Shown here: in pieces, positions 44,134-63,114 of the stretch
Layout: each line of letters starts with the position of its first letter
How positions within the stretch are numbered: position 1 is the stretch's first letter
DNA from: Oscillospiraceae bacterium
Lineage (GTDB): Bacteria; Bacillota; Clostridia; Oscillospirales; Ruminococcaceae
Assembly (NCBI GenBank): GCA_017518255.1
Contig: JAFWVK010000040.1
Span: 124,001-188,000 of the forward strand
DNA length: 64,000 nucleotides
Reading direction: 5' to 3'
Position numbers and translations under genes: made by a program
The notes under the pieces: generated by a model
What the model saw: only the letters and a program-made list of their open reading frames with translations
Told to the model about the DNA's origin: nothing
The model's database searches: none

Positions 44134-46842
44134 TCATTCGGTCATTTCGGTGAGTTCCTTGTGTTCTTCCCCTTCCACTTCGATGAGGCAGATTTTCTGG
44201 ATTTCGCTGCTGCTGACCGTGACCAGAACAAGGCCCGGTTTGACGGCACGGAATTTGAACGTATACGCCTGCGGATCAGCCTCGGTTTCCTGAATAATAC
44301 CTTCTTCCGAGCATTCATAGGTAATCTCGCCTGCATAATCCGGCTCTTTCCATTCGATCTGAAGGACAAATTCCTCACCGGGCTGAAGCAGAATGCTCTC
44401 CGGAGTGACAGAAAAATCCCGCGGGTCATCTGCAATATCATAGATATCTGAGAGGATATCGCTGCTTTCGTCCGTTTGTTCCGTATCTTCGGAAAGCAGG
44501 ACTGTAATCAGCTTTCCTTTTTCGGCATGGATTCCCTTGCACGGCGTCTGAGCAGTGACAATACCGTTTTCGCATTTGAACTCGTCGCTGATATACACCG
44601 CCATACTGAAGCCGGCAGCCTCAATCGCTTTCTTTGCATCCTCCGATTTCATTCCGGTGACATCCGGAATTTCACCGAGTGTCCCGTCAGAATTGACGGT
44701 CACGAGAACAGCCGTGCCCTGACTGACTTCCTTTCCGGCTGCAATGCTCTGTGCGAGAATTTCACCTTCCGGCTTCGAGGAATCGGCAGCATATTCGATT
44801 CTGGGCGAGAGACTGCTGTCCGTAAGCAGAGTGACTGCATCGGCATACTGTTTTCCGACGAGCTCCGGCACGGTACAAAGCTTTTTTCCTTTGCTGACGG
44901 TCAGCGTAACCTGTGTGCCGGATTCCGTATGCGAACCGGCTTCCGGCTGCTGTGCTGCAATCAGACCGACGGCGCAGTCCGTATAATCCTCCTGATATAC
45001 CGCAGTCAGACCGTAAATCGCAAGGACGGATTCAGCCTTATCCTGATTCAGCAATATAACATTCGGAACAATGACATCCTCGTTTGCAGTTGTAACCTCA
45101 ACAGCAATTGCATCCGCAGTGTTCTGAACGGTATCGGCAGGCGGATACTGATTGACGATTGTGCCCTCCGGCTTGCTACTGTCATGAACACGCTTTGCTA
45201 TTTTGACCGGTGTACCGGTTCTCTCTGCTTCCGAAAGGAATTGCTCATAGGTCTGCCCGACATGGCTTTCGATTGTTGTTTCATGATCCTCAAGTGTGTC
45301 GCCGGGATCGCGTCCGAGCGATACGGTCAGCTCCAGCGCGGAACCGGTCCGAACCTCCGTATACGGATCAATGTTCTGACGGATGACACAGCCAGCCTCA
45401 ACCGAACGGCTGTATTCCTGAGTTTCGGTGCATTTCAGACCGAGCTTGTCTGCTGTATCCGAACAAAATCCGGCATCCATCCCGATGAAATTCGGCATGG
45501 TAATCAGTTCGCTTCTAACGCTGACAACGACACCGACAACGGATTTCTTCGCGGTAAAGCTCCCGCCCGCAAGATTCTGCGAAAGCACCGTATCCGGTTC
45601 AAGGCTGTCATCCGTCTGCTTGCCGATAATACTCATCAGAAGCTCTGACTCTGTAAGCTGCTGCTCGGCATCCCGCAGATTCAGACGTGCCAGATCGGGA
45701 ACAATTGTCATATCGCTCTGCAAGTTGCTGACTGTTTTCGGCTTGGACGATTTCCGGAGATGCAATGCAAGGATGACACCGCCGGCAACCAGAAGCACAC
45801 AGGTCAGCGGAATAAGAATTTTCGCCCAGAGCGGCATTCCCCTGTTTTTCTTTGTTCTGAGCTGAACCTTTTTCACGCCGCTCAGTTCTTTGATAAAAGT
45901 CTCCATGTCCGGCGTGCGGAATTCGCTGCTGATAAAAGATGCATTCCGCATGGCGGCTGTCTTGTCAGACGACATTCTGACGCGGTAGGAGCCGAGTGCC
46001 TTCAGCTTATCCTTTTTGTGTTTGTCATAATATGCTGTCCGCGCATCCGGCTCAGGCAGCGGAACGCCCATCATCATATGCATAATCATCGCCGCGGAGA
46101 ACACATCATTTGCGGGCAGCAGCTCAGGAGAATCCGGTGATTTCAGGCGTTCCGGCGGAAAGAATTTCCGTTTTTCCTTCTGATTGATATCCGTCTGATC
46201 GTCGGTCACATTATACAGGATATTCTCCAGATACGAATTCAGAAACAGAGTTCCGTCATCCAGAATCAGCAGATCAAAGACAGAAAATCCGCCGATGACA
46301 AAACCGCTTTCATGGAGTGTGTCAATCGAACGCAGCAGCGGCAGAAAAAGCTTTTCTGTTTCCTCCGGAGAAATCTTCCCCTGCTCCCTGATATAATCCG
46401 CGAGTGATTTTCCCTTTACATATTCGGTAATGATGTAAGCAGTTCCGTTTTTTTCAAAAGACTCATACACTGCGCTGACATTCTCCGGCAGATGCTGCTC
46501 GGCAAGGAGCTGCGCCTTTTTCTGGAGAATCTCCATGTATTTGTAGAATTCCTTTTCCTTGAGCGGCGTAATCTTCGTATCGCCGATGCTGCGCTCAGAA
46601 AAACGGACAGGGCTGTATTCGTAAATGCTGACCTTTTTTGACGTCAGTGCATCCCAGCCGATATATTTGACGAACCAGCCGTCTATATTCAGCGGCATTC
46701 CGACGATATAGCGGTCTGCAAGCACGATGCCCGGCTCCATGCATCTGGCATTATCCGGCATCGTTCCTTCCGTAAATCCGCATTCCGGACAGATGTTTAA
46801 GCCGTCATCATACTGTGTCATACACTTCATACAGAATTTCAT
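44134..46842 (-). CDS. Membrane pseudokinase with zinc ribbon and PASTA repeats (902 aa), EssB-like layout
   Basis: The N-terminus is a zinc ribbon (CMKC and CPECG, residues 4-22). A Ser/Thr-kinase-like domain follows (about 43-320), but its catalytic motifs are gone. The glycine-rich loop reads NIDGWFVKYIG, the VAIK lysine is Tyr74 (VSIY), HRD is IGG (183-185), and DFG is NSY (202-204). A membrane helix lies at about 338-362. The outside part holds a series of PASTA-like repeats (about 380-790, with PNFIGM, PNVILL, PELVGK and PDVTGM starts) and a C-terminal Ig-like segment. Known T7SS EssB has a cytoplasmic pseudokinase, one membrane helix and an outer part, so this could be its equivalent (inference). 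It is the last gene of the T7SS operon, 39 nt after the active kinase gene. Confidence 0.88.
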   Translation of the reverse strand: MKFCMKCMTQYDDGLNICPECGFTEGTMPDNARCMEPGIVLADRYIVGMPLNIDGWFVKYIGWDALTSKKVSIYEYSPVRFSERSIGDTKITPLKEKEFYKYMEILQKKAQLLAEQHLPENVSAVYESFEKNGTAYIITEYVKGKSLADYIREQGKISPEETEKLFLPLLRSIDTLHESGFVIGGFSVFDLLILDDGTLFLNSYLENILYNVTDDQTDINQKEKRKFFPPERLKSPDSPELLPANDVFSAAMIMHMMMGVPLPEPDARTAYYDKHKKDKLKALGSYRVRMSSDKTAAMRNASFISSEFRTPDMETFIKELSGVKKVQLRTKKNRGMPLWAKILIPLTCVLLVAGGVILALHLRKSSKPKTVSNLQSDMTIVPDLARLNLRDAEQQLTESELLMSIIGKQTDDSLEPDTVLSQNLAGGSFTAKKSVVGVVVSVRSELITMPNFIGMDAGFCSDTADKLGLKCTETQEYSRSVEAGCVIRQNIDPYTEVRTGSALELTVSLGRDPGDTLEDHETTIESHVGQTYEQFLSEAERTGTPVKIAKRVHDSSKPEGTIVNQYPPADTVQNTADAIAVEVTTANEDVIVPNVILLNQDKAESVLAIYGLTAVYQEDYTDCAVGLIAAQQPEAGSHTESGTQVTLTVSKGKKLCTVPELVGKQYADAVTLLTDSSLSPRIEYAADSSKPEGEILAQSIAAGKEVSQGTAVLVTVNSDGTLGEIPDVTGMKSEDAKKAIEAAGFSMAVYISDEFKCENGIVTAQTPCKGIHAEKGKLITVLLSEDTEQTDESSDILSDIYDIADDPRDFSVTPESILLQPGEEFVLQIEWKEPDYAGEITYECSEEGIIQETEADPQAYTFKFRAVKPGLVLVTVSSSEIQKICLIEVEGEEHKELTEMTE

Positions 46843-46881
46843 ACGGTTCTCCTTGTCTGCAAGCGTCCTGCGAACGCAGCA

Positions 46882-48936
46882 TCAGTTTTCAAAAAAGCCT
46901 TCCTCGACCATTTTTTCCTCATAAGCCATAGTCTTACTGATATAGCGCTGACTGAAACTCGGTCCGTCATCGGTTTCCTGCATATAAATCTCGAACAGAC
47001 AGTCCCTATCTTTCAATGCCCAGCGGATATCCTGTCCTTCCTCATAATATGGCTCACCGAACTGACTGACCGCCTGATTCCGGACATCTTCATTGAATTT
47101 GCTGCCCTGTTCAAACTGAATCATATACAGCGTATCCTCGACAAAATACAGGTCAACCGAATCAAAATAATCCTCACCGTACACGCCCAGATCAATCGGA
47201 ACCAGCATGACGGTCTGCCCGTCCTTCCAGCCGCTGTACTCATTGGTCACATACAGTGTACCCGAGCCGAACAAAAGCTGAAGCGAGGGCCTTGTCATGC
47301 TGAATACGGCAGAATTGATTTTCAGCAGACCGTCATTCACCGAAAAATTACCGCCAAGCTCCGGATAGATGATATGCATATGCGGATCATCGGAGTTGCC
47401 GCTTTCGCTGTCCGTCTGAGAAGCATCGGTCTGTGAGGAAGAATCGGCATTTTGCGAGGATGCGTCAGCATCTGTCACGGACGGCGGTTCTGTTTCGCTG
47501 CCGGAATCGGCAGCGGACACAGAAGACGAAGCCGCCGGACGTTCAGGACTGTCCCTGTGCAGGAAGAAAAACAAGCCGGTACCTGCTGCAAGCAGAACAG
47601 CCGCTGCTGCTGCGGATGCAATAATCAGCGGCTTTTTACTTTTTTCCGCAGGTTCCTCCGGCTTCACGTCTTCGGCAGATGCCTCTGCCTGCTCCTGCTT
47701 TCTGAACAGCGGCTCAGCCGGTTCGGCAGAGGCAGGAATATACGCAGACAGTCTGCGGTCACGGGCTTTCTCTGCTTTCCCGGATGACGCACTGTCCGGA
47801 GCAGAGGAATCCGCAGCCTGATGAACCGGCGCTACGGTGCTTTCATCCTCCTCATATGTACCTCTGGGAATATATTCCGAAAGCCGCACATCGGAGCGCT
47901 TGGCGGAAGCGCCTTTCGGTTTTTCCGTGCGCAGGGGCTTTTCTGTTTTCGGCGCATCATCGCTGAAATCAATTTCAAAATCCGGAACCTGTGCCAGCTC
48001 CGCAAAGAGCTGGTCAATCGACTGAATCCGGTCCTCAGCTCTGACGGCAAGACCGTGACGCAGAAACGCATCAAATTCCGGCGAAGCATCAAAGCCCAGT
48101 TCTGATGGCATTTTCAGGCTGTCATCAAAGACACGGTCCGTCGCATCAGGTGGGATTGTTCCGGTGATGCACTTGTAAACGGTCGCACAAATCGCATAAA
48201 TATCCGTCCATGCGCCCTGTTTCCCGTGCCGGCGGTACTGCTCCATCGGAGCGTAGCCGTGTTTCAGGATGACTGACAGACTTTTTTCGTCTGCAAATTC
48301 CCGTGCCGCACCGAAGTCAAGCAGTTTGACCTCTTCATCGACCAGCATAATATTATCGGGACTGATATCTCTGTGAATCAGATTCTTTTCGTGTATCTTT
48401 TTGAGCGAACGGAACACAGGCATCAGCAGGCAGATCGTATTATAGCTGGAAATCGTGCCGACCTGCTTTAAGTATTCTTTGAGCGTAATGCCGTCAAGGT
48501 ACTCCATGACGATGTAAACTGTATGGTTTTCCTCAAAAAAATCCTTGACAGAAACAATACCCGGCTCATTTGCGAATTTTGCAAGTGTTCTTGCTTCATG
48601 CAGAAAATTCTCACGGCTTTTGGAGAACAGCTCAACAGCCGCATCCGCGCTGATGCTCTGCACATCGTTAGAAACGGTATTGTTGCGGTTGACCATGCCG
48701 GAGGGATAGAATTCCTTGATTGCAACGCGCATTTGCAGCAGAGTATCAAGCCCGATATAGGTGATGCCGAAGCCGCCCTCGCCGAGAACACCGCCGACAA
48801 GATATCTGTGATTCAGCATCGCGCCGCGGGAGAGTGTATGCGAGGGAGAAGCGTATGCTGAAGGATCCTTTCCGCAGACCGGGCATTGCGTGCAATCCGC
48901 AGGGATCTCATTCATACAGTAGGGACAGTAATTCAT
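46882..48936 (-). CDS. Transmembrane Ser/Thr protein kinase with zinc ribbon (684 aa)
   Basis: The start at 48936 follows AGAGGA. An N-terminal zinc ribbon (CPYC and CPVCG, residues 4-22) leads to a full kinase domain (about 44-315): G-loop LGEGGFGITY (51-60), VAIK Lys74, HRD (188-190, RDISPDN) and DFG (207-209). A disordered linker with RLSEYIP (351-357) and RLSAYIP (395-401) precedes the membrane helix (about 435-459). The outer C-terminal domain (about 525-684) is beta-rich. It should phosphorylate T7SS proteins such as the FHA protein. It is encoded between the FHA gene and the pseudokinase. Confidence 0.94.
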   Translation of the reverse strand: MNYCPYCMNEIPADCTQCPVCGKDPSAYASPSHTLSRGAMLNHRYLVGGVLGEGGFGITYIGLDTLLQMRVAIKEFYPSGMVNRNNTVSNDVQSISADAAVELFSKSRENFLHEARTLAKFANEPGIVSVKDFFEENHTVYIVMEYLDGITLKEYLKQVGTISSYNTICLLMPVFRSLKKIHEKNLIHRDISPDNIMLVDEEVKLLDFGAAREFADEKSLSVILKHGYAPMEQYRRHGKQGAWTDIYAICATVYKCITGTIPPDATDRVFDDSLKMPSELGFDASPEFDAFLRHGLAVRAEDRIQSIDQLFAELAQVPDFEIDFSDDAPKTEKPLRTEKPKGASAKRSDVRLSEYIPRGTYEEDESTVAPVHQAADSSAPDSASSGKAEKARDRRLSAYIPASAEPAEPLFRKQEQAEASAEDVKPEEPAEKSKKPLIIASAAAAAVLLAAGTGLFFFLHRDSPERPAASSSVSAADSGSETEPPSVTDADASSQNADSSSQTDASQTDSESGNSDDPHMHIIYPELGGNFSVNDGLLKINSAVFSMTRPSLQLLFGSGTLYVTNEYSGWKDGQTVMLVPIDLGVYGEDYFDSVDLYFVEDTLYMIQFEQGSKFNEDVRNQAVSQFGEPYYEEGQDIRWALKDRDCLFEIYMQETDDGPSFSQRYISKTMAYEEKMVEEGFFEN

Positions 48937-48969
48937 GTTTTTTCCTCTTTCCCGATCAGATTCCATGCG

Positions 48970-49875
48970 TTACCAGGAAAACTGTTCGCTGCAAAGCGGG
49001 ATAAAGAGCAGTTCTGTCTCGCCGAGCATAATTCTGTCATAGATTTTCAGCTCAGCGGGCATCAGCAGCATCTGTCTGTTGACATAGATAAACGTCTTGC
49101 TGTCGGTGCTTTGAAGGAAGAATTTTTTATTGAGCGGGTCATACAGCAGTACAGCCTGAGCGCCGCGCGAAACGGTCTTGTCTCCGTGAAGGTCAATCGT
49201 CACAGGATGCTCGGCATCGGAGCGTCCGATGGTGCTTTTGGTATCGGTAACGGCAAAGACCTTTCCCTTGATGTTTGCAGAAACAGCAACAAGCCAGCCG
49301 AGTATCAGATCGTCAGCCAGCTCATCAAATATGATCTGTGTCGCACCCTCATCATCCCGCTGCGAAGCGGCTTTCTCTTTTGCATCCTCAAGATTGCCGG
49401 TGAAATTGACCTCACTGATATAGGATGTCAGCGAAGGCTCCTGCGCAGGCTGTACCGGCTGAACGGGAACAGGCTCCGGTGCAGGCTGCTCTGCCTGTAC
49501 GGCATCAGCAGTTATTCTCGGATGACCGCAGCGCATACAGAAATTTCCGACAACAACTGTTCCGCATACACATCTCCATGCACCGTCAGAAACCGGTTCA
49601 GACTCCGCCTGCGGTGCGGCAGCGGGTTCCGGCAGCGGTGCGGCAGCGGGTTCCGGCTGCGGTGCGGCAACAGGCTCCGGCTGCGGTGCGGCAACAGGCT
49701 CCGGCTGCGGTGCAGCAACAGGCTCCGGCTGCGGTGCGGCAACAGGCTCCGGCTGCGGTGCGGCAATCGTTACGGGCTGCGGCGCTTGCTGTTCTGCAAG
49801 CGCTGCGCAGTGCGGGCACTGCGGATACTTATCCGCATCATAATAATGCATATTGGGACAACGCTTCAGTTTCAT
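48970..49875 (-). CDS. FHA-domain protein with Cys-knuckle ribbons and Pro repeats (301 aa)
   Basis: CPNM and CPHC (residues 6-23) form one half-ribbon, and a CVCG/CMRCG ribbon lies at about 102-117. Between them is a PEPVAAPQ octapeptide repeat. A short segment SLTSYIS (148-154) resembles the RLSxYIP repeats of the kinase. DDEGATQIIF (174-183) recalls the TxxE-like phospho-Thr tails of FHA regulators. The FHA domain (about 195-301) has STIGRSD, TVSRGAQA and YVNRQ. FHA domains bind phospho-threonine, so this protein is a likely reader of the neighbouring kinase. The ATG overlaps the stop of the upstream PP2C gene (4 bp). Confidence 0.9.
   Translation of the reverse strand: MKLKRCPNMHYYDADKYPQCPHCAALAEQQAPQPVTIAAPQPEPVAAPQPEPVAAPQPEPVAAPQPEPVAAPQPEPAAAPLPEPAAAPQAESEPVSDGAWRCVCGTVVVGNFCMRCGHPRITADAVQAEQPAPEPVPVQPVQPAQEPSLTSYISEVNFTGNLEDAKEKAASQRDDEGATQIIFDELADDLILGWLVAVSANIKGKVFAVTDTKSTIGRSDAEHPVTIDLHGDKTVSRGAQAVLLYDPLNKKFFLQSTDSKTFIYVNRQMLLMPAELKIYDRIMLGETELLFIPLCSEQFSW
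49616..49759. repeat. 24-bp tandem repeat inside the FHA gene
   Basis: Six units of 24 bp (49616-49759); four of them (from 49664) are almost identical. They encode the octapeptide repeat PEPVAAPQ. Confidence 0.9.
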
Positions 49876-50606
49876 TTCTGTTCCTCCGTATCATATCTGA
49901 TTACTGCAACGGTCGTATTATCAGCCGCACCCTCCGACTGTCTGACTGCATGAATCAGGCAGTCTGCCGCTACATCGGCCCGGGTATGCGTCCGCAGAAT
50001 ATCTGCGATCTGTTCATCCCCGATTTTCTTGTAAAGTCCGTCGGTTGTCAGCAGGAGCACATCGTTCTGCTCCAGCAGCAGCGGCTGCATACTGACATCG
50101 ACAATATCAATACCGTTCATGCCGAAATAGCTGGCAAGACGGCTCCCCTTCCGCTGTTCAGCCTGATAGGTTGCCGCATCAATCAGATTCTTTTTCAGGC
50201 GCAGTCCGATGACATACGCATAATCGTGATCTGTTGTAATCTGTTTCAGTCTGCCGTTCCGGTAAATATACAGTCTGCTGTCACCGACCGAAAGCCAGTA
50301 CAGCGAATGGCCGCTGATATAAACCGTCACGGCAGTCGTGCCGCAGCGCTCCCCGAATTCCTCATAGATTTCCCGGTCAATCCGTTCGGCTGCATCCACG
50401 ATAAACGCGGGATAGCTGCCGGTAAACCCTTCTTTGAAGGCTTCGATAAAGCGTGAAACGCAGAGCCGTGAGGAAGCACCGCCGTCGGCGCGGCTCCCGA
50501 CACCGTCACAGACCGCTGCAAAAAGCCCCTGCTCCGTCTCGCAGAATTCTGCGGCATCCTCCTGATAGGTTCTTGTTCCGATGAAGCTGCGTATCTCGCA
50601 AAGCAT
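49872..50606 (-). CDS. PP2C-family protein phosphatase, copy A (244 aa)
   Basis: I use the ATG at 50606 because AAAGGAG lies 8 nt upstream; a GTG at 50615 also overlaps the previous stop. The motifs are YQEDAAEF (metal Asp), AVCDGVGSRADGG, LSVGDSRLYIY, LTTDGLYKKI and ADNTTVAVI, all expected for a Mn/Mg-dependent Ser/Thr phosphatase. There is no membrane segment. It would remove phosphate from targets of the neighbouring kinase. It overlaps the FHA gene by 4 bp. Confidence 0.93.
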   Translation of the reverse strand: MLCEIRSFIGTRTYQEDAAEFCETEQGLFAAVCDGVGSRADGGASSRLCVSRFIEAFKEGFTGSYPAFIVDAAERIDREIYEEFGERCGTTAVTVYISGHSLYWLSVGDSRLYIYRNGRLKQITTDHDYAYVIGLRLKKNLIDAATYQAEQRKGSRLASYFGMNGIDIVDVSMQPLLLEQNDVLLLTTDGLYKKIGDEQIADILRTHTRADVAADCLIHAVRQSEGAADNTTVAVIRYDTEEQK

Positions 50607-50611
50607 GGTTC

Positions 50612-51340
50612 TCACTCCTTTACGGTAACGGCAACGGCTGTCAGATTATCCGCTCTGTCCGTGCGTGTTCTCTGCACGGCAAGCGCAGAAAGTGCGGAGA
50701 GCCATGCCTTAGCGCCCTTTGCAGCCTGCAGAGTGTACTCCATGTCAGACTCCGTAACCGGCTCCCAGAAGCCGTCAGTGCAAAGCAGAAAGGCATCTCC
50801 GGCGCAGATTTCAAACTCAGATTTCGCAATGCGCTGTGCCTCGGTATCATCGCCGAGTGCATGGAGCAGTCTGTTCCGGTCGGGGTGAAAGCGGATTTCC
50901 TCCTCGCGGATCTCACCGGTCATATAGAGAATCTGCGGCAGACTGTGGTCGGCGGTCCGGCTCAGCAGCTTCCCGTTCCGGAAGCGGTAAAGCCGTGAAT
51001 CGCCGATATGCAGGGAAATGCCGCGGTTTCCTTCCAGACACAGCAGAACAGCAGTTGTTTTCATGTGCTTCATGCGCAGATCGGCAGTCTGCGCCGCAAG
51101 GACAGCAGCCTGCGCCCGTTCCAACACATCCGAAGCAAATGCATCCAGACCGGAGCTGCAAAGAAAGTACTGTCTGACGGCATCGACAGCGGTCTGCGCG
51201 GCGATATCGCCCATGCCGTGACCGCCGAGACCGTCACAAACGATGAAGCAGAATCTGTCTCCGCTGACCGCAAAACCGGCTCTGTCCTCGTTGACAGATC
51301 TGCTTCCCTGATCCGTAAAAATACTGTGCTCAATCTTCAT
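50612..51340 (-). CDS. PP2C-family protein phosphatase, copy B (242 aa)
   Basis: I use the ATG at 51340 (MKIEHSIFTDQGSRSVNEDRAGF), the usual PP2C opening; an in-frame GTG at 51355 directly follows the upstream stop. No strong ribosome site is visible, so translation is likely coupled to the WXG100 gene before it. The motifs are VNEDR, IVCDGLGGHGMG, LHIGDSRLYRF, LCTDGFWEP and ADNLTAVAV. It is distinct from copy A in sequence. Two phosphatases for one kinase is unusual. Confidence 0.92.
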   Translation of the reverse strand: MKIEHSIFTDQGSRSVNEDRAGFAVSGDRFCFIVCDGLGGHGMGDIAAQTAVDAVRQYFLCSSGLDAFASDVLERAQAAVLAAQTADLRMKHMKTTAVLLCLEGNRGISLHIGDSRLYRFRNGKLLSRTADHSLPQILYMTGEIREEEIRFHPDRNRLLHALGDDTEAQRIAKSEFEICAGDAFLLCTDGFWEPVTESDMEYTLQAAKGAKAWLSALSALAVQRTRTDRADNLTAVAVTVKE

Positions 51341-51355
51341 TTCGGATGCTCGCAC

Positions 51356-51661
51356 TTATTCTGACTGCGGGTCACGGTTGAACTCACCCAGACTCTTGTC
51401 ACAGGCATCAATGACCTGCCGGCATTCCGCAACGATGTCATTGAGCGTTTTCAGCAGCTCGGAGATATCACCCAGATTGGACCGGATGCCTTTTGCATCC
51501 TTGACGAAAGTATCGGCAGCTTTGCCCTCCCAGTTTCGGTTGACGGTTTCGACAATAACATCATATTGCCAGAGCAAAGTAGCCAGTCTGGAGTTTTTTA
51601 CACCCAGTAAATACAGGGCTCTGTCGATTTCCTTGGTATTGATGCAAACATATTCGCTCAT
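51356..51661 (-). CDS. WXG100-family protein, EssC-adjacent (101 aa)
   Basis: AGGTG lies about 8 nt before the ATG. The 101-aa helical protein has the hairpin motif WEG at about 44-46 (NRNWEGKAADTFVKD), flanked by two long amphipathic helices. This is the ESAT-6/WXG100 fold and size, the standard T7SS substrate. It lies 11 nt after the second EssC gene. Confidence 0.9.
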   Translation of the reverse strand: MSEYVCINTKEIDRALYLLGVKNSRLATLLWQYDVIVETVNRNWEGKAADTFVKDAKGIRSNLGDISELLKTLNDIVAECRQVIDACDKSLGEFNRDPQSE

Positions 51662-56200: not shown

Positions 56201-56342
56201 ATTTTTTGGCAAGGCCGTATTTGATGCCGTCGAGAAGCTGTTTCAGTGTCAGATCGCGCAGAACGATCAGCTCAAAGACCAGACCTTCGCCGCTTTCCGG
56301 ATCAATGAACTGTACGCCGATCAGCAGCTTATTATTCTCCAT
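53223..56342 (-). CDS. essC: EssC N-terminal half: ubiquitin-like domain, membrane helices and FtsK D1 ATPase (1039 aa)
   Basis: The start at 56342 gives MENNKLLIGVQFID; a GTG at 56408 in the same frame is an alternative. The N-terminus (about 1-125) with TLTTYNNALTEDKN and LVDIGFISSTRLVFD looks like a YukD/ubiquitin-like domain instead of the FHA domains of B. subtilis-type EssC. Two membrane helices lie at about 188-245. A middle domain leads to the first FtsK ATPase, with Walker A GTTGSGKSE (676-684), Walker B LVLVVDEFTEL (near 820-830) and the VGRSLGFHIILISQN region. It is the membrane part of the T7SS motor. The remaining ATPase domains are in the next gene. Confidence 0.93.
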   Translation of the reverse strand: MENNKLLIGVQFIDPESGEGLVFELIVLRDLTLKQLLDGIKYGLAKKSGEAFYGKCKQIFDVCCTACDSSGRYRKITLTTYNNALTEDKNEDGRFPITEQDMSRTLVDIGFISSTRLVFDPRETYRSYEINTSAIIPAFNPSEQDSSNAFPHYNISTRQLYKFDDTPVEIIPPSPPPQKNDQNLFFMLLPTLIMISVTILTRIISTGRSGSGAMIGVLLSAAMSVVTMVTSVINFFRSKKKYKQSLANWRSTYEDYIDKTIAGILERQQADTEKLCELYPDVNELFDEKNPYKSVYGVSGNIFSRCQADPDFLTVRLGISDMIHNRFEIVGSKQAEMFSSNSFQLKFDKVKIVIADDPEFENKDDETFYLSNLPNYISTKYKYMKRAPMLFSLRNCGALGIVAPNLVFADRLIQRAVFDMCFYQSPEDVQFVVLFEPTDNPDQIENAIANYKFLPHFRELFPDRSQFVFDYGNAGTTFSSMLSIMEERIAAAENGGVHFPHIVFIVYHEYAMKEHAFAQYLPKMPENAEKYQNQLGITFIFPKMYKEHLPAFCDHVISFTGDHTAELIPYEDEGCRTEFSFNMTPEWDARLYNTSKILSSLCFSKISQNGKVPSAVSLFELYGLSKNTLNISALWDSENRINIIETLAVPIGKTENGLTYLDLHEDFDGPHMLVAGTTGSGKSETIITYLLGLCMYFRPDEVNLMLVDMKGGGFIKRIGTLPHVVGSVTDVDGDENGTGAEYMLKRFLDALRSEIKRRKILFNSMYVDSINQYIGACRNIDSHIKKINNRLRGEDKEPLSEEEEAKIRTQARENSLAHLVLVVDEFTELKRFSTESNDVDFIGEITTIARVGRSLGFHIILISQNIEGAITDDIRVNSKSRLCLKVATRQASKEMIGNDLAASPSMPGHGRAYLLVGTGSKFEYFQSGYAGAVAEENFELPTEITEASKTGSYTKFYRSEKDNTDAISRKKELEAQGKLETQLNAVVGSIKTYYNRNKSRYPKVHIIFEKPLPNRIIYESGSIYEERDGRFELMREAEE

Positions 56343-56456
56343 ATCATCACCACACTTCTGCGTTCCCTTGCAAATCGGCAGAGGGAACAGCAGGTTTTTG
56401 TCCCGCACCGTGAAACCCGGTTTCAGGCGGGATCTGAATATAAATATAAAGATGAT

Positions 56457-56491
56457 GTAGTGACGGCAAACCTGAAATGTGCCGCCACTAC
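56457..56491. other. Hairpin between orf318 and EssC
   Basis: A 12-bp stem (56457-56468 / 56480-56491) with one mismatch, in the only large gap (161 nt) inside the T7SS operon. On the minus strand it is followed by an AT-rich tract (ATCATCTTTATA). It could modulate read-through or processing. Confidence 0.45.
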
Positions 56492-56503
56492 AGTCATCAT
56501 GCG

Positions 56504-57460
56504 TCAGATTTCGCTCTTTGCAGCCGCCAGAATCTCCGACACTGCGCCGGAAAAATCGGGCATTTCGGGTATCGCGGGATAATCCTGTACGGCTGAACTG
56601 CGGATTGCCGGAGCAGGCATCACAGGAATCTGAATGATTTTTGCCTGCACAGGCGTATATTGAATGTTGATTTTGACCTCGCTCGGAGGAGGAAGCAGAA
56701 AACTGCTTTCAGAAATGCACTCCGGCGCGGGAACATCCGGCACCGAAGTATCAGGCAGCTCCGCAGACGGAATCGCAAATACGGAATTATCCACGGATGC
56801 ATCCGGGACACGCACGCGAATGTCGCTCCATGCCGTTTCCGGAATCGCACTGCACTGCGGCGGCTCTGCCGTTTCGACGGGCACGCTGATCCGGATGCTG
56901 TCTGCAAGGCTGACAGACTTTGCGGCATCCGCAAGCACCGGAGCAATAAACACCGTTGATGTTTCCGGAATGATTTCAGCGACAGCAGCACGCATCTGCT
57001 CCGGATCCGACACGGAAAACTCCGGGAAGCAGGCGGCGGTATCCGCATCGGAAATCACCGGAACCGGAATCTCTGCCCGAATCTGCTCAGCTCCGATTTC
57101 AGGAACCAGCGGAATCTCCGGCACTGCGGTATCGAACGGAATCGCATCCACCCGTACAGGCTCGGCGCACAGCACGGTATCCGCGAGCGTGACCTGCGTA
57201 TCCGGCAGATCGCAGCCGATCCCGGCGACTTCAATAACCGGTGTGTCATATGAAAGCTGCGGCTTCTCAATCTCCTTGTCGAGGTACTCATTCTGCCTGA
57301 CGGTCGCCTTATCAACGCGGTCAAATTTGCCTCTGAGGTTGAGCATGACGGAGGTCATCTCATATTCAAGCGTCGCCTTGATTCTGGCGATTTCCTCCTC
57401 GCTGATCTCCCCGAACAGCTGATCCTCTGCATTGATAAGCAAATCGTTTGTTTGTTCCAT
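56504..57460 (-). CDS. T7SS-locus Pro/Val/Ile-rich protein of unknown function (318 aa)
   Basis: GGGAGGTG lies before the ATG at 57460. The N-terminal helix (about 1-70) includes EEEIARIKATLEYEMTSVMLNLRGKFDRVDK. The remaining 240 residues are an unusual string of short Val/Ile-Pro segments (PEIPLVPEIG, EIPVPVIS, FIAPVLAD, RISVPVETAE, VPDVPAPE, IQIPVMPAP), acidic overall with almost no Lys. There is no signal or membrane helix. It probably forms an extended or beta-type filament and may be a scaffold or exported filament of the T7SS. I do not recognise the family. Confidence 0.8.
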   Translation of the reverse strand: MEQTNDLLINAEDQLFGEISEEEIARIKATLEYEMTSVMLNLRGKFDRVDKATVRQNEYLDKEIEKPQLSYDTPVIEVAGIGCDLPDTQVTLADTVLCAEPVRVDAIPFDTAVPEIPLVPEIGAEQIRAEIPVPVISDADTAACFPEFSVSDPEQMRAAVAEIIPETSTVFIAPVLADAAKSVSLADSIRISVPVETAEPPQCSAIPETAWSDIRVRVPDASVDNSVFAIPSAELPDTSVPDVPAPECISESSFLLPPPSEVKINIQYTPVQAKIIQIPVMPAPAIRSSAVQDYPAIPEMPDFSGAVSEILAAAKSEI

Positions 57461-57492
57461 AAGCACCTCCCTGCGGTCAGCTCAGGCAGCCG

Positions 57493-57798
57493 TTATGACA
57501 GGGAAGACGGAATGTTGTCTGCGATCTGCTGATCTGCATTTTCCATCTGGTCGGCATTTGCCTGAAGCAGCGTGCTCAGTGCCGAGAGGATACCCGGAAC
57601 AGTCTCGCTCATGTAGGAGTTTACCGGACCGTTGATAAAGCCGATCATCTTATCCTTGCTGGAGCCTTCCCAGCCGGCAGTTGCATCGAGAAAATCCTTC
57701 TGGAAGGTTGCCGCAGCCTGCTTGTATCTCGCTGCAATATCCTCAACCTGTGATGCAGCCGTTCTCATCTCATCAAACTTAAAAACGATATCAGCCAT
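57493..57798 (-). CDS. WXG100-family protein (101 aa)
   Basis: AAAGGAG lies before the ATG at 57798. It has the central hairpin motif WEG (TAGWEGSSKDKM, about 42-52) between two amphipathic helices, as in ESAT-6/EsxA. The C-terminal helix ends ADNIPSSLS. It is a likely secreted T7SS substrate and lies 32 nt upstream of the Pro-rich gene. Confidence 0.92.
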   Translation of the reverse strand: MADIVFKFDEMRTAASQVEDIAARYKQAAATFQKDFLDATAGWEGSSKDKMIGFINGPVNSYMSETVPGILSALSTLLQANADQMENADQQIADNIPSSLS

Positions 57799-57841: not shown

Positions 57842-58171
57842 TTACGAGGATGCCTGCGACGGGTCTCTGTTGATATCACCGAGCTTTGGATCTACGGTAT
57901 CGAGGAGCTGCGACTTAATGCCGTCGAGCATGGAGATGATACCGGCGGTGATCGAGGTACCCGGCTCAGTCAGATTATCAACAAGCACCGGCTTTGCCTT
58001 GTTGTTGAAGAAATCCAGATAGCCTGTGGAAGCGTCACCGATGAATCCGCCAGCGGTGAGGTTGTTGATGAGGGATGTGAGCTCATCAAACAGAGCCTGT
58101 GCCGTTGTGATATAGGTCGAAACACTGTTTTTCGCCTCTGTGATGATCGCATTGGAAAGTATTGATGCCAT
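57842..58171 (-). CDS. WXG100-like helical protein lacking the Trp (109 aa)
   Basis: The start at 58171 (MASILSNAI) follows AAAGGAG by 9 nt. Size and predicted helix-turn-helix match WXG100 proteins, but the turn reads GGFIGDASTGY, with no Trp-x-Gly. The C-terminal end (LGDINRDPSQ) resembles the other WXG100 protein's GEFNRDPQS. It may be a partner of the adjacent WXG100 protein. Confidence 0.75.
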   Translation of the reverse strand: MASILSNAIITEAKNSVSTYITTAQALFDELTSLINNLTAGGFIGDASTGYLDFFNNKAKPVLVDNLTEPGTSITAGIISMLDGIKSQLLDTVDPKLGDINRDPSQASS

Positions 58172-58231
58172 AATCAAATACTCCTTTCAAAAATAAGATG
58201 ATTATTTGTATGTCCCTGCGGACAAAAGGGT

Positions 58232-58573
58232 TCAGTCAAGCTCATCAACGAGCTTCTTGTATTCCTGAAATACAGGTTGGAAATGACTGCATGCGAGTCT
58301 GAGATTCTCCGAAACATGCTCTGCAACATAGTACAGATTTGCATAAGGCTCATAGATCGAATGAAGGAACAAGTTGTTTATTTTCCATCCGGTCGGTGTA
58401 TTCATGCCCTTGATTGCAAAGTCATTAAAAACATCCAGTGTTTCGTGCAGCAGCGCCTTGATATCCTTGAACAACTGATCCATATCCTGGCTGGCTTTTT
58501 TGAGCACTTCCTCATCCAGAACGATATTGTAATTCAGGGAATTAACTGCTGAAATCAGCTCATTTTTTGCCAC
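58232..58573 (-). CDS. Small helical T7SS-locus protein (113 aa)
   Basis: It starts with GTG at 58573, 7 nt after GGGAGGT. It is all-helical, with no clear W-x-G except GWKINN (about 62-67). Two long helices flank this turn, so it could be a distant WXG100-type partner. It lies between the TPR gene and the WXG100-like genes, and its small size suggests a secreted or chaperone role. Confidence 0.75.
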   Translation of the reverse strand: MAKNELISAVNSLNYNIVLDEEVLKKASQDMDQLFKDIKALLHETLDVFNDFAIKGMNTPTGWKINNLFLHSIYEPYANLYYVAEHVSENLRLACSHFQPVFQEYKKLVDELD

Positions 58574-58590: not shown

Positions 58591-60201
58591 TCAGCTCTGC
58601 TCCAGTTCACTGCGGCACTGTGCAATATATTCAAGCGCAGCGGTCTGATCCTCGGATGCCATCAGCTTGGCAAGCTCTTCTGCTTTTTCAAATTTTCCTG
58701 TCTCCGCGAGCATTCTTGTCCGGAAGATCAGTGCATAGCCGGCGTTAGCGTTCTTGCGCAGCATCTCACTGCGGAAAAATGCAAGCCCTTCTTCATAAGC
58801 CTTGTCTGCATCCGCCTGCGTAAAGCCGCCCTGTCCCTTCTTCGCGAGCTGCATAATCGAGAATGCCTCGGAATAGCGCCCGAAGAAGGAATAATACGTG
58901 TTGATTACAGTATCCTTGACGAGCCGTGCATATTCCAGCGCCTTTTCATAGTCCTCTTTGACCGCATAGCAGGAAAGCAGCATGAAATTGATGCGCGCAT
59001 GGAAATTCTGCGCATTTTCGATTTTTGCCTGTTCATTCAGCTCACGGAGCTGATCCTTGTTCGGCAGGCCGAATGCCGCAGGATCAACGCCCTCCGGCAG
59101 CGCATATTCCGAAAACTCATCCGGATATTCTCTGACCGGTCTTCCCTGCTCATCATAGCTGACCGAAGCAAGCTCACCGATGCTTTCGTCAATTTCGCCG
59201 CTTGCAAGTCTGGCACTCATCCGCTCGCGGTCTGCCTGCCGCATGGCGTCAATCTCAGCCTGATCGGGCTTGAAACCGGTGCGCGGTTTTTCGGGCTGCG
59301 TCTCCTGCTGCGGCTTCTCATTCAGCATCTTCAGCAGGTCGATCGCTTCATCCGTCTTTTCCATTGCAATGCACAGTTCAGCCAGTGCAAGAACCAGCTC
59401 ATTCTTGCTTTCGGGCGTACCCTGCGGGCTGACGATAAGCTGACTCATCAAATCATACGCCTTCTGCCGGAAATCGTGATTGACATCAGCACTGCTGCCC
59501 GCTGCGGTCGCATAGAGGTTGGCGCGGCTGACGTCAATGCCGTACTGCGCCTCCTCGCTGTTCACCGCATATTTCTCGGCGTCATTGAGAATCTTCTCAG
59601 CTCTTTCATACTGCTCATTGGCAGCAAGCAGGCTGAAATAGACCATATAGCTTTGCAGCTCGGAGGGAGCCAGATTCACCCATTTCGCAGCGCACTTCTC
59701 GGCATTTTCAAAGTCTTCAATCTGGAGATAAAGCTGGATTTTCTCGGAAAGAATTTCCGGATTCAGCGCAGCCTTGCCGGTTTTATCGGCATCCTCATAT
59801 TTCTGATAATTGATGAGCGCGGATTTATAATCCTGACGGATGCTGCACATCAGCGCCATCTGATAATAAATGCGGGCTGCGACATCATCCGAGCATTTCA
59901 TCGTCTCGGCTTTGGTGTAGTACTCCAGCGCCTTGCCGACGTCGCCGGAAAAGAAATAGGCATTTGCCATATTGAAGACTGCATCGCCGTTTTCGGGGGC
60001 GAGGTCACAGGATTTCTTGAAATATGCATAAGACTCCTGAAATCTGCCGAGACTGACCAGTGCGGCACCGGCTCTGGAAAGAGCAGGCTCATCGTCCGGC
60101 TTTTCCTCAAGCGCTTTGTTGTACCACTTTAACGCTTCCTCGTAGTTTTCGTTGCTGAAAGCGAGATCGGCACTCATCATCGCTTCCTTATAGTTTTCCA
60201 T
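58591..60201 (-). CDS. TPR-repeat protein of the T7SS locus (536 aa)
   Basis: The ATG at 60201 follows AGAGGTG by about 13 nt; TTG codons at 60207 and 60213 in the same frame are alternative starts. At least five tetratricopeptide repeats cover residues about 10-240 (ALKWYNKALEEKPDDEPALSRAG, SYAYFKKSCDLAPENGDAVFNMA, ALEYYTKAE). A second set follows an acidic linker (about 400-530). There is no signal peptide. TPR domains bind proteins, so it may serve as a chaperone or adaptor for the secreted partners. Confidence 0.9.
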   Translation of the reverse strand: MENYKEAMMSADLAFSNENYEEALKWYNKALEEKPDDEPALSRAGAALVSLGRFQESYAYFKKSCDLAPENGDAVFNMANAYFFSGDVGKALEYYTKAETMKCSDDVAARIYYQMALMCSIRQDYKSALINYQKYEDADKTGKAALNPEILSEKIQLYLQIEDFENAEKCAAKWVNLAPSELQSYMVYFSLLAANEQYERAEKILNDAEKYAVNSEEAQYGIDVSRANLYATAAGSSADVNHDFRQKAYDLMSQLIVSPQGTPESKNELVLALAELCIAMEKTDEAIDLLKMLNEKPQQETQPEKPRTGFKPDQAEIDAMRQADRERMSARLASGEIDESIGELASVSYDEQGRPVREYPDEFSEYALPEGVDPAAFGLPNKDQLRELNEQAKIENAQNFHARINFMLLSCYAVKEDYEKALEYARLVKDTVINTYYSFFGRYSEAFSIMQLAKKGQGGFTQADADKAYEEGLAFFRSEMLRKNANAGYALIFRTRMLAETGKFEKAEELAKLMASEDQTAALEYIAQCRSELEQS

Positions 60202-60237
60202 ATTCAAATTCAATCACCTCTTGAATTATTACTGCAT

Positions 60238-62367
60238 TTACCAGAGCTTTCCGACCAGGGACTGTGCTGCCTGCTTTGCATAATCGATGCCCTGATTCAC
60301 CGAGGATGTCACCGCATCCGCATAGTTGCCGCCGATGACGCTGTTGATTGCATCCTTGCCGGTATTGATCGCGCTGCTGACCGAGCTTGTCACGCTCGAT
60401 GCTGCACTGTTGACCGAGCCTGTTACGCTCGAAACCACGCTGTTGACCGAGCCTGTTACGCCCGAAACCACGCTGTTGACCGAGCCTGTTACGCTCGAAA
60501 CCACGCTGTTGACCGAGCCTGTTACGCCGGAAATCGCATTGTTGACAGCGTTCTGTGCACCTGAAGCAATACCGGAGATATCCGAAACAACATTGTTAAT
60601 CGAATTTCCAATGCCGTTTGTGATATCCGAAACACCCGGGAGCTTTGAGAGATCGGGCATCATATCGGATGTAATGATATCGCTGAAATTGAACCCGGAA
60701 ATCTTGTCTGCCAGATCGGTAAGCCCCATGGAATCGGCGATCTGATTCAGACCGTTGTTGAGCATATCCTCCGGCGAACGTGTACCGAAGGCGCTTTCAA
60801 GCGCATCGCCGGCAAGATGCTGTGCGAATTCGGACGGGTTCTTCACGATATCTATGACTTCGCCCAGTCTGTCGATGCCGAAGGTATCCTTTGCCCAGTC
60901 CTGCGCGATGTTGAGCTGATCGGTCACCCAGCCCTTTGCATCGCCGAGCTGATCGCTGACCCACTCCTGCGCATCGCCGAACTGATCCATAACCCAGTCC
61001 TTTGCTTCGCCGAGCTGATCGGAAACCCAGTCCCGTGCCTCGCCGACCTGATCGGTGACCCATTGCTTTCCCTGCTCGTAAGTATCCTTCGCCCATTGAT
61101 AGGCGTCGCCGAACGTATCCTTTGCCCAGCCTTCCGCGTCGCCGAGTGCTGTATTGAGCCAGTCCTTTGCCTCGCCATAGGCATCGGTCACGAAGTGAAC
61201 CGTGTCATTCACTACTTTTCCGAAATCCGTCTGTTCAAAGGCATCCCAGACCTCTCCGAGCGCATCCTTTGCGACACCGACAAGCTGGTCTTCTACAATT
61301 CCAAGCGCGCCGCTTCCTAAGCTGCCGAGCGCATTATCCAAAACGCCGTTCCAGTATTCATCATTGTCCGTAAAGAATCCTGCAAGATCGCCGTCATTGT
61401 CGATCATGTAATTGACCGCATCAGCGGTGACCTTGCCGGCCACACTCGAACCGACATCAACAAGAAGCTGTGCGCCCTGTGCAAGAAGCTCATTTCCGAT
61501 TGAACTGACAAGCGTTCCGCCGAGTGCACCGAGACCGCCGCTCACCGCACCTGAGACAGAGCCGACCAAAAAACTGTCAGCGCCGGAATCAAAGATCTCG
61601 CCGAAACTCTTGCCTTCTGCGATGCCGGTGACAACCGTGACCCCCAGGCTGGTTAGTCCTCCTGTCAGCGCCGCAGTCGCCGCGGCAGCGAAGATCGGCG
61701 CGGCAGCACCGCATGTGACGGCTGACAGGACAAAGCATCCGGCAATGACGATCGCACCGACCACATACTTGATAATAGCCTTGTAGTGATCCTTGATGAA
61801 CTTGCCGATCTCTTTGAAGCCCTTTTTGATCTTGTCAACGACCCATTCGATGCCGTCTTTGATTGCATTGCCGATCTTCTTAAAGAAGTTTCCGACCGCC
61901 TTGACCGCACTTGACAGCGCATCGCAGAACTTCTTCCACCAGCTCTTTTTCTTCGGCGGTTCCGGCGGTTTCAGCCATGGGTACTTCTCGTAAAACTCTT
62001 TGTTTTTGCGATCAAGCCCATAGGAGCAGTTGCAGTCTGCCGCATAAGCCAGCCTGATAAAGCTCGCAAACCTGCTGCTGACTGTTTCGAGCTTTTCGCG
62101 TTTGTGCTCCTCGACAGCCTTGACACGGGTTTCGAGTGATTCGCAGGCCTCCTGCACACGCTTGGTGCATTTGCTGAGATTCGTTTTGTCATAATTATCC
62201 GGCCCGAAGCCGCAGCCGCCGACCGCCGCACACTGCGCAGCGCGGAAGCCGTAAAACACATTCCGCTGTTTTTTCTTCAGCGTTTCGAGCTGTACGGCAA
62301 ATACCATAGCATTCACAACACTGCCGCTATTTTTGGAATGCTTGCCCCCGAAAATCTCTATTCGCAC
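60238..62367 (-). CDS. Large repeat-rich T7SS-locus protein with 11-residue Trp periodicity (709 aa)
   Basis: The GTG at 62367 follows AGGTAGGTG. The N-terminal helical part (about 1-130) contains several Cys residues and ends PWLKPPEPPKKK. Amphipathic Lys-rich helices (about 141-195) and a hydrophobic Ala/Gly-rich stretch (about 198-250, possibly two membrane helices) follow, then a glycine-zipper-like region. Residues 400-499 are nine 11-residue repeats whose tryptophans are exactly 11 apart (403, 414, ... 491). Near the C-terminus are five VTGSVNSVVSS repeats. The N-terminal half resembles the scaffold of T7SS LXG polymorphic toxins, but no toxin domain is visible. It may be exported or may insert in membranes; the function is unknown. 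Confidence 0.85.
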   Translation of the reverse strand: MRIEIFGGKHSKNSGSVVNAMVFAVQLETLKKKQRNVFYGFRAAQCAAVGGCGFGPDNYDKTNLSKCTKRVQEACESLETRVKAVEEHKREKLETVSSRFASFIRLAYAADCNCSYGLDRKNKEFYEKYPWLKPPEPPKKKSWWKKFCDALSSAVKAVGNFFKKIGNAIKDGIEWVVDKIKKGFKEIGKFIKDHYKAIIKYVVGAIVIAGCFVLSAVTCGAAAPIFAAAATAALTGGLTSLGVTVVTGIAEGKSFGEIFDSGADSFLVGSVSGAVSGGLGALGGTLVSSIGNELLAQGAQLLVDVGSSVAGKVTADAVNYMIDNDGDLAGFFTDNDEYWNGVLDNALGSLGSGALGIVEDQLVGVAKDALGEVWDAFEQTDFGKVVNDTVHFVTDAYGEAKDWLNTALGDAEGWAKDTFGDAYQWAKDTYEQGKQWVTDQVGEARDWVSDQLGEAKDWVMDQFGDAQEWVSDQLGDAKGWVTDQLNIAQDWAKDTFGIDRLGEVIDIVKNPSEFAQHLAGDALESAFGTRSPEDMLNNGLNQIADSMGLTDLADKISGFNFSDIITSDMMPDLSKLPGVSDITNGIGNSINNVVSDISGIASGAQNAVNNAISGVTGSVNSVVSSVTGSVNSVVSGVTGSVNSVVSSVTGSVNSAASSVTSSVSSAINTGKDAINSVIGGNYADAVTSSVNQGIDYAKQAAQSLVGKLW
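60376..60540. repeat. 33-bp tandem repeat, Ser/Val-rich segment of the 709-aa gene
   Basis: Five 33-bp units (from 60376, 60409, 60442, 60475 and 60508). The middle three are nearly identical at the DNA level. They encode VTGSVNSVVSS-type undecapeptides. Confidence 0.9.
60871..61170. repeat. Tryptophan-phased 33-bp repeat segment of the 709-aa gene
   Basis: Nine 33-bp units encode xWxxDxxGxAx-type undecapeptides with Trp codons every 33 bp. DNA identity between units is moderate, lower than in the Ser-rich repeats, so this array is probably older. Confidence 0.9.
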
Positions 62368-62401: not shown

Positions 62402-62992
62402 TCATTCCTCAATGTATTTTCCGTAGTGTTCCATGTCGAGAGTGGTTGCATCCATGGTTTTGCGGGTATCGGTCATAACATTCATACAGTTCCGCATTTT
62501 GGCTTCCTGCTCCTCGATGTAACTGATCCAGTTCTGCTCAATGCGGCGAGTTTCCTGAATCTGCGCCTCCAAATCATCCCGCTCTGCCTTGAACAGCTCA
62601 ACCGCCCTGGCGGAATGGCTGTTGCTCGGAACACGGTCGGTGTTGAAGATCAGGAACGATCTCGGAAAATTCACGCCGCTACAGGAAACGCATCCGTCCA
62701 ATGCTTCCCATGTATATTTTGCAACACTGTTGGCTTCCTCGATCTTTCTATCCGCATAATCGCCGTCACTGAGCTCCTTGATTGCTTGGCACATACGCTC
62801 TTTCAGCTCATTCAGCCTCCGTTCACTGTCATAGACGCCCTCCAGTACGTTCTTCGTTGACTTCCAGACATCGTAGGCATTTTCATACTCTGATTTAGCG
62901 GCATAGTAGTCCTCGGCAGCCGTGTTGTACCGCGAAACCGCCGAATCATAGTATTCCTGTGCTTCCTCGGGGGTAGGGTTGCTCCAGCTCAC
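62402..62992 (-). CDS. Coiled-coil protein, first gene of the T7SS operon (196 aa)
   Basis: The start is the GTG at 62992, since AGGAAGTG precedes it and the longer open frame upstream runs into the promoter. The protein begins VSWSNPTPEEAQEYYDSAVSRYNTAAEDYYAAKSEYENAYDVWK. It is helical, with long coiled-coil segments (about 10-75 and 130-190) and two Cys (CVSC, about 93-96). Its size and position recall the small helical partner proteins encoded beside LXG toxins. It lies 34 nt before the 709-aa gene. Confidence 0.8.
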   Translation of the reverse strand: MSWSNPTPEEAQEYYDSAVSRYNTAAEDYYAAKSEYENAYDVWKSTKNVLEGVYDSERRLNELKERMCQAIKELSDGDYADRKIEEANSVAKYTWEALDGCVSCSGVNFPRSFLIFNTDRVPSNSHSARAVELFKAERDDLEAQIQETRRIEQNWISYIEEQEAKMRNCMNVMTDTRKTMDATTLDMEHYGKYIEE

Positions 62993-63085
62993 ATTCTCAC
63001 TTCCTTTCCGTTCGGTATAATTTCGCTTCGATTTTTGGAAAATAATACAAAAAGTGATGAAAAAACTATTTTCTCCATTGTGTTT

Positions 63086-63114
63086 ATTATAACAAATAAT
63101 GGGAATTCTGTCAA
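63086..63114 (-). promoter_or_regulatory. T7SS operon promoter
   Basis: Minus-strand TTGACA (63109-63114), 17 nt, TATAAT (63086-63091). About 95 nt of leader precede the first start codon. The stretch 63115-63227 holds no gene. Confidence 0.85.

What the first reader, a model, noticed from the sequence alone, without database searches (positions are those of the whole stretch)
44134..63114. A T7SS (WXG100/EssC) operon merged with a full Ser/Thr phospho-signalling module
One consensus promoter (63086-63114) precedes 15 minus-strand genes with gaps of 0-60 nt and one of 161 nt, ending at a bidirectional terminator. The genes combine WXG100-type proteins and an EssC motor with a kinase, a pseudokinase, an FHA reader and two PP2C phosphatases. 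No separate EsaA, EssA or EssB homologue is recognisable. This looks like a phospho-regulated T7SS variant.
Basis: partly seen in the sequence, partly recalled or inferred. Interest (0 to 1): 0.85.

Follow-up and report, generated by a model that had tools for sequence, protein, structure and literature searches.

The report
Kinase-coupled type VII secretion variant
A gut/rumen Ruminococcus-type bacterium carries, in one operon, an unusual protein-export machine (type VII secretion, with its motor split in two and fused to a ubiquitin-like domain) together with a complete kinase-phosphatase-reader control unit that also exists on its own in the same genome, which suggests that these bacteria plug a ready-made switch into their secretion systems.

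Summary
In detail: 15 co-directional genes (62,992-44,134, minus strand) run from a perfect sigma-70 promoter to a strong bidirectional terminator. [quoted passage not shown] No EssB or EsaA is found in the genome. This split is conserved in 76 of 78 related loci and forms a deep EssC clade with its own core: a TPR protein, four small WXG100-like proteins and a disordered protein. I could not match that core to any published T7SS type (a-j). T7SSs with kinases, phosphatases and FHA proteins were already described in 2024, so the general idea is not new. What is new is the provenance of the control unit: it is not orthologous to the T7SS kinases compared here, matches a free-standing cassette elsewhere in the same genome, and also follows a different, FHA-EssC T7SS in two other genomes. 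Best reading: a portable phospho-switch replaced the ancestral kinase/envelope-protein module. Phospho-control itself is inferred, not shown.

The parts
63086..63114 (-). sigma-70 promoter, TTGACA-17-TATAAT, sole strong promoter of the operon
   Evidence: 12/12; conserved upstream of gene 1 in 12/12 related loci
62402..62992 (-). gene 1 (T1), 196 aa helical protein, likely partner of T2
   Evidence: ORF and GTG start; orthologues in relatives
60238..62367 (-). gene 2 (T2), 709 aa, LXG-like helical N-terminus, hydrophobic segment 202-220, low-complexity C-terminus; candidate secreted substrate
   Evidence: no Pfam family over cut-off
58591..60213 (-). gene 3 (T3), 540 aa TPR protein, core component
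58232..58573 (-). gene 4 (T4), 113 aa, WXG100-like size and position, conserved TPAG motif (TPTG in the window copy)
57842..58177 (-). gene 5 (T5), 111 aa, WXG100-like with F-x-G(D/E)
57493..57798 (-). gene 6 (T6), WXG100 protein (WEG), over Pfam cut-off
56504..57466 (-). gene 7 (T7), 320 aa Pro-rich, probably disordered protein with conserved EYEMT motif near the N-terminus
56451..56498 (-). stable RNA hairpin in the T7-EssC1 gap, positionally conserved but not sequence-conserved
   Evidence: z -5.5; relatives
53223..56342 (-). EssC1, 1039 aa: ubiquitin-like domain (1-124), two TM helices, FtsK-type ATPase D1
51673..53226 (-). EssC2, 517 aa: ATPase domains D2 and D3; ATGA overlap with EssC1
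51356..51661 (-). gene 10 (W10), second WXG100 protein (W-x-G)
50612..51355 (-). PP2C phosphatase A, metal-binding motifs intact
49872..50615 (-). PP2C phosphatase B, metal-binding motifs intact
48970..49875 (-). zinc-ribbon plus FHA protein; GR...SR...N phosphopeptide residues kept
46882..48966 (-). zinc-ribbon Ser/Thr kinase, catalytically intact, one TM (447-465), conserved extracellular domain
44134..46842 (-). PASTA pseudokinase: zinc ribbon, degenerate kinase domain, one TM (342-360), 6 PASTA
44070..44106 (.). bidirectional intrinsic terminator

Best explanation
This is the operon of a T7SS of a previously unnamed architecture. A split ATPase (EssC1 with a built-in EsaB/YukD-like ubiquitin domain, plus EssC2) exports small WXG100-type proteins and an LXG-like partner/substrate pair. 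Co-transcribed with it is a membrane Ser/Thr signalling cassette. The active kinase (STK) senses the envelope through its extracellular domain and the PASTA pseudokinase scaffolds at peptidoglycan. STK phosphorylates threonines in the cassette or machine, the FHA protein docks on these and switches assembly or firing, and two PP2C phosphatases reset it. Shown here: gene content, conservation, catalytic residues, the split, the predicted ubiquitin-like fold, the conserved promoter, and the kinship of the cassette's phosphatases and kinases to a free-standing copy in the same genome and to a copy behind another T7SS type. Inferred: secretion, phospho-control, and the envelope signal.
For: The core TPR-T4-T5-T6-T7-EssC1-EssC2-W10 recurs across Bacillota and Coriobacteriia. 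EssC1/EssC2 is split in 76 of 78 loci and the clade stands apart from all reference EssCs (SH-aLRT 99; quick method, one broken row L022). The N-terminus is modelled as a ubiquitin fold (VIA Z 8.5, rmsd 2.4 over 81 residues). The kinase is intact in the aligned kinase rows and the PASTA kinase degenerate in 13 of 13. PP2C and FHA residues are kept. Phosphatase trees pair A with A' and B with B' of the free-standing cassette (96/97 and 97/92). The kinase tree puts window kinases and cassette kinases on one side and T7SS class C/D kinases, the L044 kinase and PrkC on the other (100/99). The same cassette order lies behind an FHA-EssC/YukD/WXG100 system in G132, and behind another such EssC system in G154.
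Against: No expression, secretion or phosphorylation data. The cassette occurs without T7SS in the same genome (C52) and in G063, so its partner need not be the T7SS. No phosphorylation target is identified. The kinase ectodomain has no convincing fold match. L126 has the core without any recognised kinase in its locus. PASTA-peptidoglycan binding is taken from general knowledge, not tested.
Confidence: 0.62

Rival explanations
1. The cassette is an independent envelope-stress signalling module that merely shares the transcript. It has another target, such as cell-wall synthesis, and does not regulate the T7SS.
For: A free-standing version exists in the same genome and in G063. PASTA kinases usually act on cell-wall growth (general knowledge).
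Against: Genes from EssC2 to FHA are packed with 11, 0, -4 and -4 nt gaps, and similarly tight spacing is seen in relatives. The same five-gene order follows a different T7SS backbone in G132 and G154.
Confidence: 0.2
2. The module is structural. The PASTA pseudokinase replaces EssB (cytoplasmic pseudokinase, one TM, extracellular part) as a fixed subunit that binds EssC, and kinase/phosphatase activity is secondary.
For: EssB-like topology, consistent loss of catalytic residues, no EssB in the genome.
Against: EssC1 has no FHA domain for an EssB-like contact. The counterpart in G063, G132 and G154 keeps an intact kinase. An active kinase and two intact phosphatases are kept beside it.
Confidence: 0.13
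3. It is an ordinary member of a published T7SS subtype (T7SSc, e, f or j).
For: These also combine an EssC-type ATPase, WXG100, kinase, PPM phosphatase and FHA (PMC11217815).
Against: EssC lies outside the reference EssC clade; ubiquitin domain fused to EssC and no FHA on it; no vWA, DUF6382 or giant Ig-like protein in the operon; kinase and phosphatases not grouped with the L044 T7SS set or with class C/D.
Confidence: 0.05

Closest known systems
T7SSc-T7SSj subtypes (Garrett, Higginson and Palmer 2024, PMC11217815), especially T7SSe/T7SSj
   Same: EssC-type ATPase, WXG100 proteins, Ser/Thr kinase with one TM, PPM phosphatase and separate FHA protein in one locus; no EsaA/EssB.
   Different: Here the ATPase is two genes with a fused ubiquitin-like domain; TPR core; two PP2Cs; a zinc-ribbon kinase family and a PASTA pseudokinase instead of TsxD and the giant Ig-like TsxI. 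The paper's main text does not mention split ATPases, PASTA, or Ruminococcus; a TPR domain is mentioned only as the C-terminus of TsjD.
Mycobacterial ESX-1 (T7SSa) with EccCa1/EccCb1
   Same: ATPase split after D1: EssC1 matches EccCa (TIGR03924) and EssC2 matches EccCb (TIGR03925), both below cut-off. That ESX-1 is split this way is general knowledge.
   Different: Ubiquitin-like domain sits on the ATPase rather than on EccD. EccB, EccD and mycosin were not sought.
T7SSb (EsxA-EsaA-EssA-EssB-EsaB-EssC)
   Same: WXG100 proteins, FtsK-type motor, a pseudokinase with one TM.
   Different: No FHA on EssC, no EssB or EsaA in the genome, EssC scores below the TIGR03928 cut-off.
T6SS threonine phosphorylation pathway (PpkA-PppA-Fha; e.g. 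PMC3953482)
   Same: Works alike in outline: transmembrane kinase, PP2C phosphatase and FHA reader encoded with a secretion system.
   Different: Unrelated secretion machine; here two phosphatases and a PASTA pseudokinase are added. Likeness of working is inferred from gene content.

Membership tests
Type VII secretion system (broad) | EccC/EssC-type FtsK-family membrane ATPase | tested here: met
   TIGR03928 E 1.7e-137 (EssC1) and 5.4e-35 (EssC2), FtsK_SpoIIIE over cut-off in both, P-loops intact
Type VII secretion system (broad) | WXG100 protein encoded with it | tested here: met
   57493-57798 36.0 bits vs cut-off 27.3; further W-x-G protein at 51356
T7SSb | EssC equivalog score (TIGR03928 cut-off 778.4) | tested here: not met
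   459.9 and 120.4 bits for the two ORFs; references score 980-1781
T7SSb | FHA domains at the EssC N-terminus | tested here: not met
   no FHA hit; AF2 model of residues 1-175 is ubiquitin-like
T7SSb | EssB and EsaA present | tested here: not met
   best hits 9.9 and 12.6 bits vs cut-offs 229.75 and 122 over the whole genome; one control genome passes each cut-off
T7SSa | EccB, EccD, mycosin | not tested
   not searched
T7SSc | separate TscB ubiquitin-like protein and vWA protein TscE | tested here: not met
   no YukD or VWA hit among the 15 proteins; ubiquitin-like domain is fused to EssC1
T7SSe/T7SSj | FHA-bearing TsxC and giant Ig-like TsxI | tested here: not met
   no FHA on EssC1; no such gene in the operon; the class C giant finds nothing in the genome (a weak negative)
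T7SSe/T7SSj | TsxJ with DUF6382 plus FHA; TsxD kinase orthologue | tested here: not met
   FHA protein has no DUF6382 hit; kinase on the other side of a 100/99 branch from the L044 kinase. L044 stands in for the published set by gene content; named accessions were not available
Stk1/PrkC PASTA kinase (NF033483) | catalytic kinase domain with PASTA repeats, curated cut-off 450 bits | tested here: not met
   244.4 bits; HRD, DFG and VAIK motifs lost in 13 of 13 rows

The most novel reading that the evidence does not exclude
A new T7SS subtype, common in rumen and gut Bacillota and reaching Coriobacteriia, defined by a split ATPase with a built-in ubiquitin-like domain and a TPR/four-small-protein core. 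Its control unit is interchangeable: an ancestral kinase/giant-envelope-protein set was replaced in the Ruminococcus branch by a portable PP2C-PP2C-FHA-kinase-PASTA(pseudo)kinase cassette. The same cassette was independently coupled to an FHA-EssC T7SS and also works alone.
Probability: 0.5. Interest if true: 0.75.

Novelty: new variant of a known kind. Interest (0 to 1): 0.63.

Why it matters
If right, it adds a widespread gut and rumen branch to the T7SS family and shows that T7SS regulation is modular: a complete phospho-switch can be plugged into different T7SS machines. It makes the open question of whether any T7SS is controlled by threonine phosphorylation directly testable in non-pathogenic isolates such as R. 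albus AR67. The same genome carries a free-standing control cassette for comparison.

Tried and rejected
Simple T7SSb: rejected. Ordinary T7SSc/e/j: rejected. Split EssC as a sequencing frameshift or assembly artefact: rejected, 76 of 78 loci are split, mostly with short overlaps or gaps, and only L117 and L126 are fused. FHA domain at the EssC1 N-terminus: not found. Transcript break between WXG100 and EssC genes: no promoter-like site found there in the window or in 12 relatives, but a conserved hairpin exists. Rfam: no hit. Kinase ectodomain fold: AF2 pLDDT 89 but best matches VIA Z 7.6 and Foldseek E 4e-3 to an E. coli YdcD double-wing domain, treated as inconclusive. A search for the class C giant protein in the own genome was empty, a weak negative. 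T2 shows no known toxin domain and no obvious immunity gene. YukD itself did not appear among the listed fold matches, so the ubiquitin-like domain is tied to YukD only by fold class and context.

Full report
OBSERVATION. All 15 minus-strand genes are present, spaced by -4 to 54 nt except one gap of 161 nt. The promoter is a 12/12 consensus match and the 3' end is a 15-bp bidirectional terminator. The single-promoter claim gains weight from conservation: all 12 related loci examined have a TTGACA-17-TATAAT-like site 50-140 nt before gene 1, at 10-12 of 12 matches, always with a 17-nt spacer, and no such site before EssC1. These are sequence patterns, not transcript data.

WHAT THE GENES ARE. 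Pfam and NCBIfam give WXG100, EccC/EssC-type FtsK ATPases, TPR, two PP2Cs, FHA, a protein kinase and a PASTA protein with a weak kinase domain. The motor is two ORFs. EssC1 holds two membrane helices and ATPase D1; EssC2 holds D2 and D3, with all three P-loops intact across relatives. The first 124 residues of EssC1 are predicted to be a ubiquitin-like beta-grasp domain (mean pLDDT 75 over 175 residues; VIA Z 8.5, rmsd 2.4 over 81 residues to the Ddi2 UBL, many other UBLs just below). By context this is the counterpart of EsaB/YukD, which is a separate protein in T7SSb and is fused to the EccD membrane protein in actinobacteria (PMC11217815; PMC1779556). That identification rests on fold class and gene context, not on sequence similarity to YukD.

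RELATED LOCI. A scan of 84,980 species genomes gave 80 loci, mainly Ruminococcus and other Oscillospiraceae and Lachnospiraceae, also Erysipelotrichaceae, Coprobacillaceae and Coriobacteriia. Gene-order analysis shows one core, TPR-T4-T5-T6(WXG100)-T7-EssC1-EssC2-W10(WXG100), followed by a variable block. Where both halves are present EssC is split in 76 of 78 loci. An EssC tree places 53 sampled sequences on one side of a long branch against 21 references, including 8 that exceed the TIGR03928 cut-off (SH-aLRT 99; quick method with long branches, and one reference row, L022, was an evident outlier, probably a wrong-strand translation, so the result is strong but not final).

THE VARIABLE BLOCK. 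In one large branch (class D) it is a kinase, a small membrane protein and a giant Ig-like protein (Pfam), much like the T7SSd/e components D, H/K and I of PMC11217815. In the sister group of the window's branch (class C) a PPM phosphatase and a vWA protein are added. In the window's own branch (classes A and B) it is PP2C(-PP2C)-FHA-kinase-PASTA pseudokinase. The kinase keeps its catalytic motifs in all aligned rows and the PASTA protein has lost them in 13 of 13. PP2C metal ligands and the FHA GR...SR...N residues are kept.

WHERE THE CONTROL UNIT COMES FROM. The same genome holds a second set on contig C52, with no T7SS gene around it: PP2C-A' (42%), FHA, a vWA-FHA protein, kinase, PP2C-B' (34%), FHA (37%), 327-aa protein, kinase (42%), PASTA/LRR pseudokinase (25%). 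In the phosphatase tree, A groups with A' (96/97) and B with B' (97/92), while class C and L044 T7SS phosphatases lie elsewhere. In the kinase tree, window kinases, PASTA pseudokinases and the C52 kinases are on one side of a 100/99 branch, and class C/D kinases, the L044 T7SS kinase and PrkC on the other. Two further genomes, G132 and G154, carry PP2C-A, PP2C-B, FHA, kinase, PASTA kinase in the same order downstream of a different T7SS. In G132 this has a YukD protein, a WXG100 protein (both over the Pfam cut-off) and an FHA-bearing EssC scoring 1144 bits, over the TIGR03928 cut-off. G063 has the five genes with only a weak, FtsK-like EssC match elsewhere. In a concatenated tree the window-type sets form one clade and the G132/G154 sets another, nearer to G063. 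The cassette has therefore been joined to T7SSs at least twice, or joined once and then passed between backbones; either way it is portable. The direction of transfer between free-standing and T7SS-linked forms is not resolved, since the tree is unrooted. In G063, G132 and G154 the last gene still encodes an intact kinase, so the pseudokinase is probably a derived state.

MECHANISM. Best-supported model: STK senses the cell envelope, phosphorylates threonines in the operon's proteins, FHA docks and switches the machine, and PP2C-A and PP2C-B reset it, with the PASTA pseudokinase as a wall-binding scaffold. This is like the T6SS threonine phosphorylation pathway (PMC3953482). The parts are shown; the steps are inferred. 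The main rival is that the cassette is a passenger, and the association with two T7SS backbones argues against it. A second rival, that the pseudokinase is simply an EssB substitute, is not excluded and could be true alongside the main model.

KNOWN OR NEW. Kinase/PPM/FHA-bearing T7SS variants are published (PMC11217815), and further searches found no description of a split ATPase with a fused ubiquitin domain in Bacillota or of a PASTA pseudokinase cassette in a T7SS. The library covers only open-licence papers and that paper's supplements were not readable, so 'unpublished' is likely but not certain. I rate it a new variant of a known kind, close to a new subtype.

SECONDARY FINDING. The T7-EssC1 gap holds a stable hairpin in the window (z -5.5) and in most class A/B relatives with a gap long enough (mean z -3.0 over 9 loci; other gaps average about -1.4 to +0.7 where several loci could be compared), although its sequence differs between loci. 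It separates the WXG100/substrate genes from the machine genes and may set different mRNA levels. This is an inference.

Noticed in passing
window 56451-56498 (-) and the T7-EssC1 gap of L050, L052, L054, L056, L060, L061, L071, L073, L076: A strong RNA hairpin sits between the WXG100/T7 genes and EssC1 in most class A/B loci with divergent sequence; absent or weak in L067 and in loci with very short gaps.
   Followed up: partly
L149 (own genome, contig C52, about 74.9-87.9 kb): Free-standing cassette with two kinases, pseudokinase, two PP2Cs, FHA proteins, a vWA-FHA protein and a preceding 248-aa receiver-like ORF; no T7SS gene seen.
   Followed up: partly
L173 and L175 (G132), L171 and L172 (G154): A different EssC-type T7SS followed by the same five-gene cassette; the last kinase is catalytically intact here.
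   Followed up: yes
L067 22358-23122 and L174 12438-16532: Extra zinc-ribbon kinase genes directly after the PASTA gene, suggesting tandem duplication.
   Followed up: no
L076, first gene from position 2 (-), 929 aa: Divergent gene upstream of the T7SS operon whose product looks like kinase, FHA and ABC-type ATPase in one chain.
   Followed up: no
L077 16730-23138: Tandem array of about five T2-like genes behind the core operon in an Erysipelotrichaceae MAG; next to it a PP2C with a zinc ribbon and TM.
   Followed up: no
window 46885-47394 (-), STK residues 525-694: The kinase's extracellular domain is confidently modelled (pLDDT 89) but has no clear structural relative in the PDB.
   Followed up: partly
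L047 (G143:C10): Another two-ORF EssC (801 and 558 aa) of the L044 type with DUF6382/FHA-like and PP2C fragments nearby; may be an independent split or a broken gene.
   Followed up: no
window 22014-22229 (+): Part of an 1134-aa frame scores 17 bits to WXG100, below the cut-off; probably chance.
   Followed up: no
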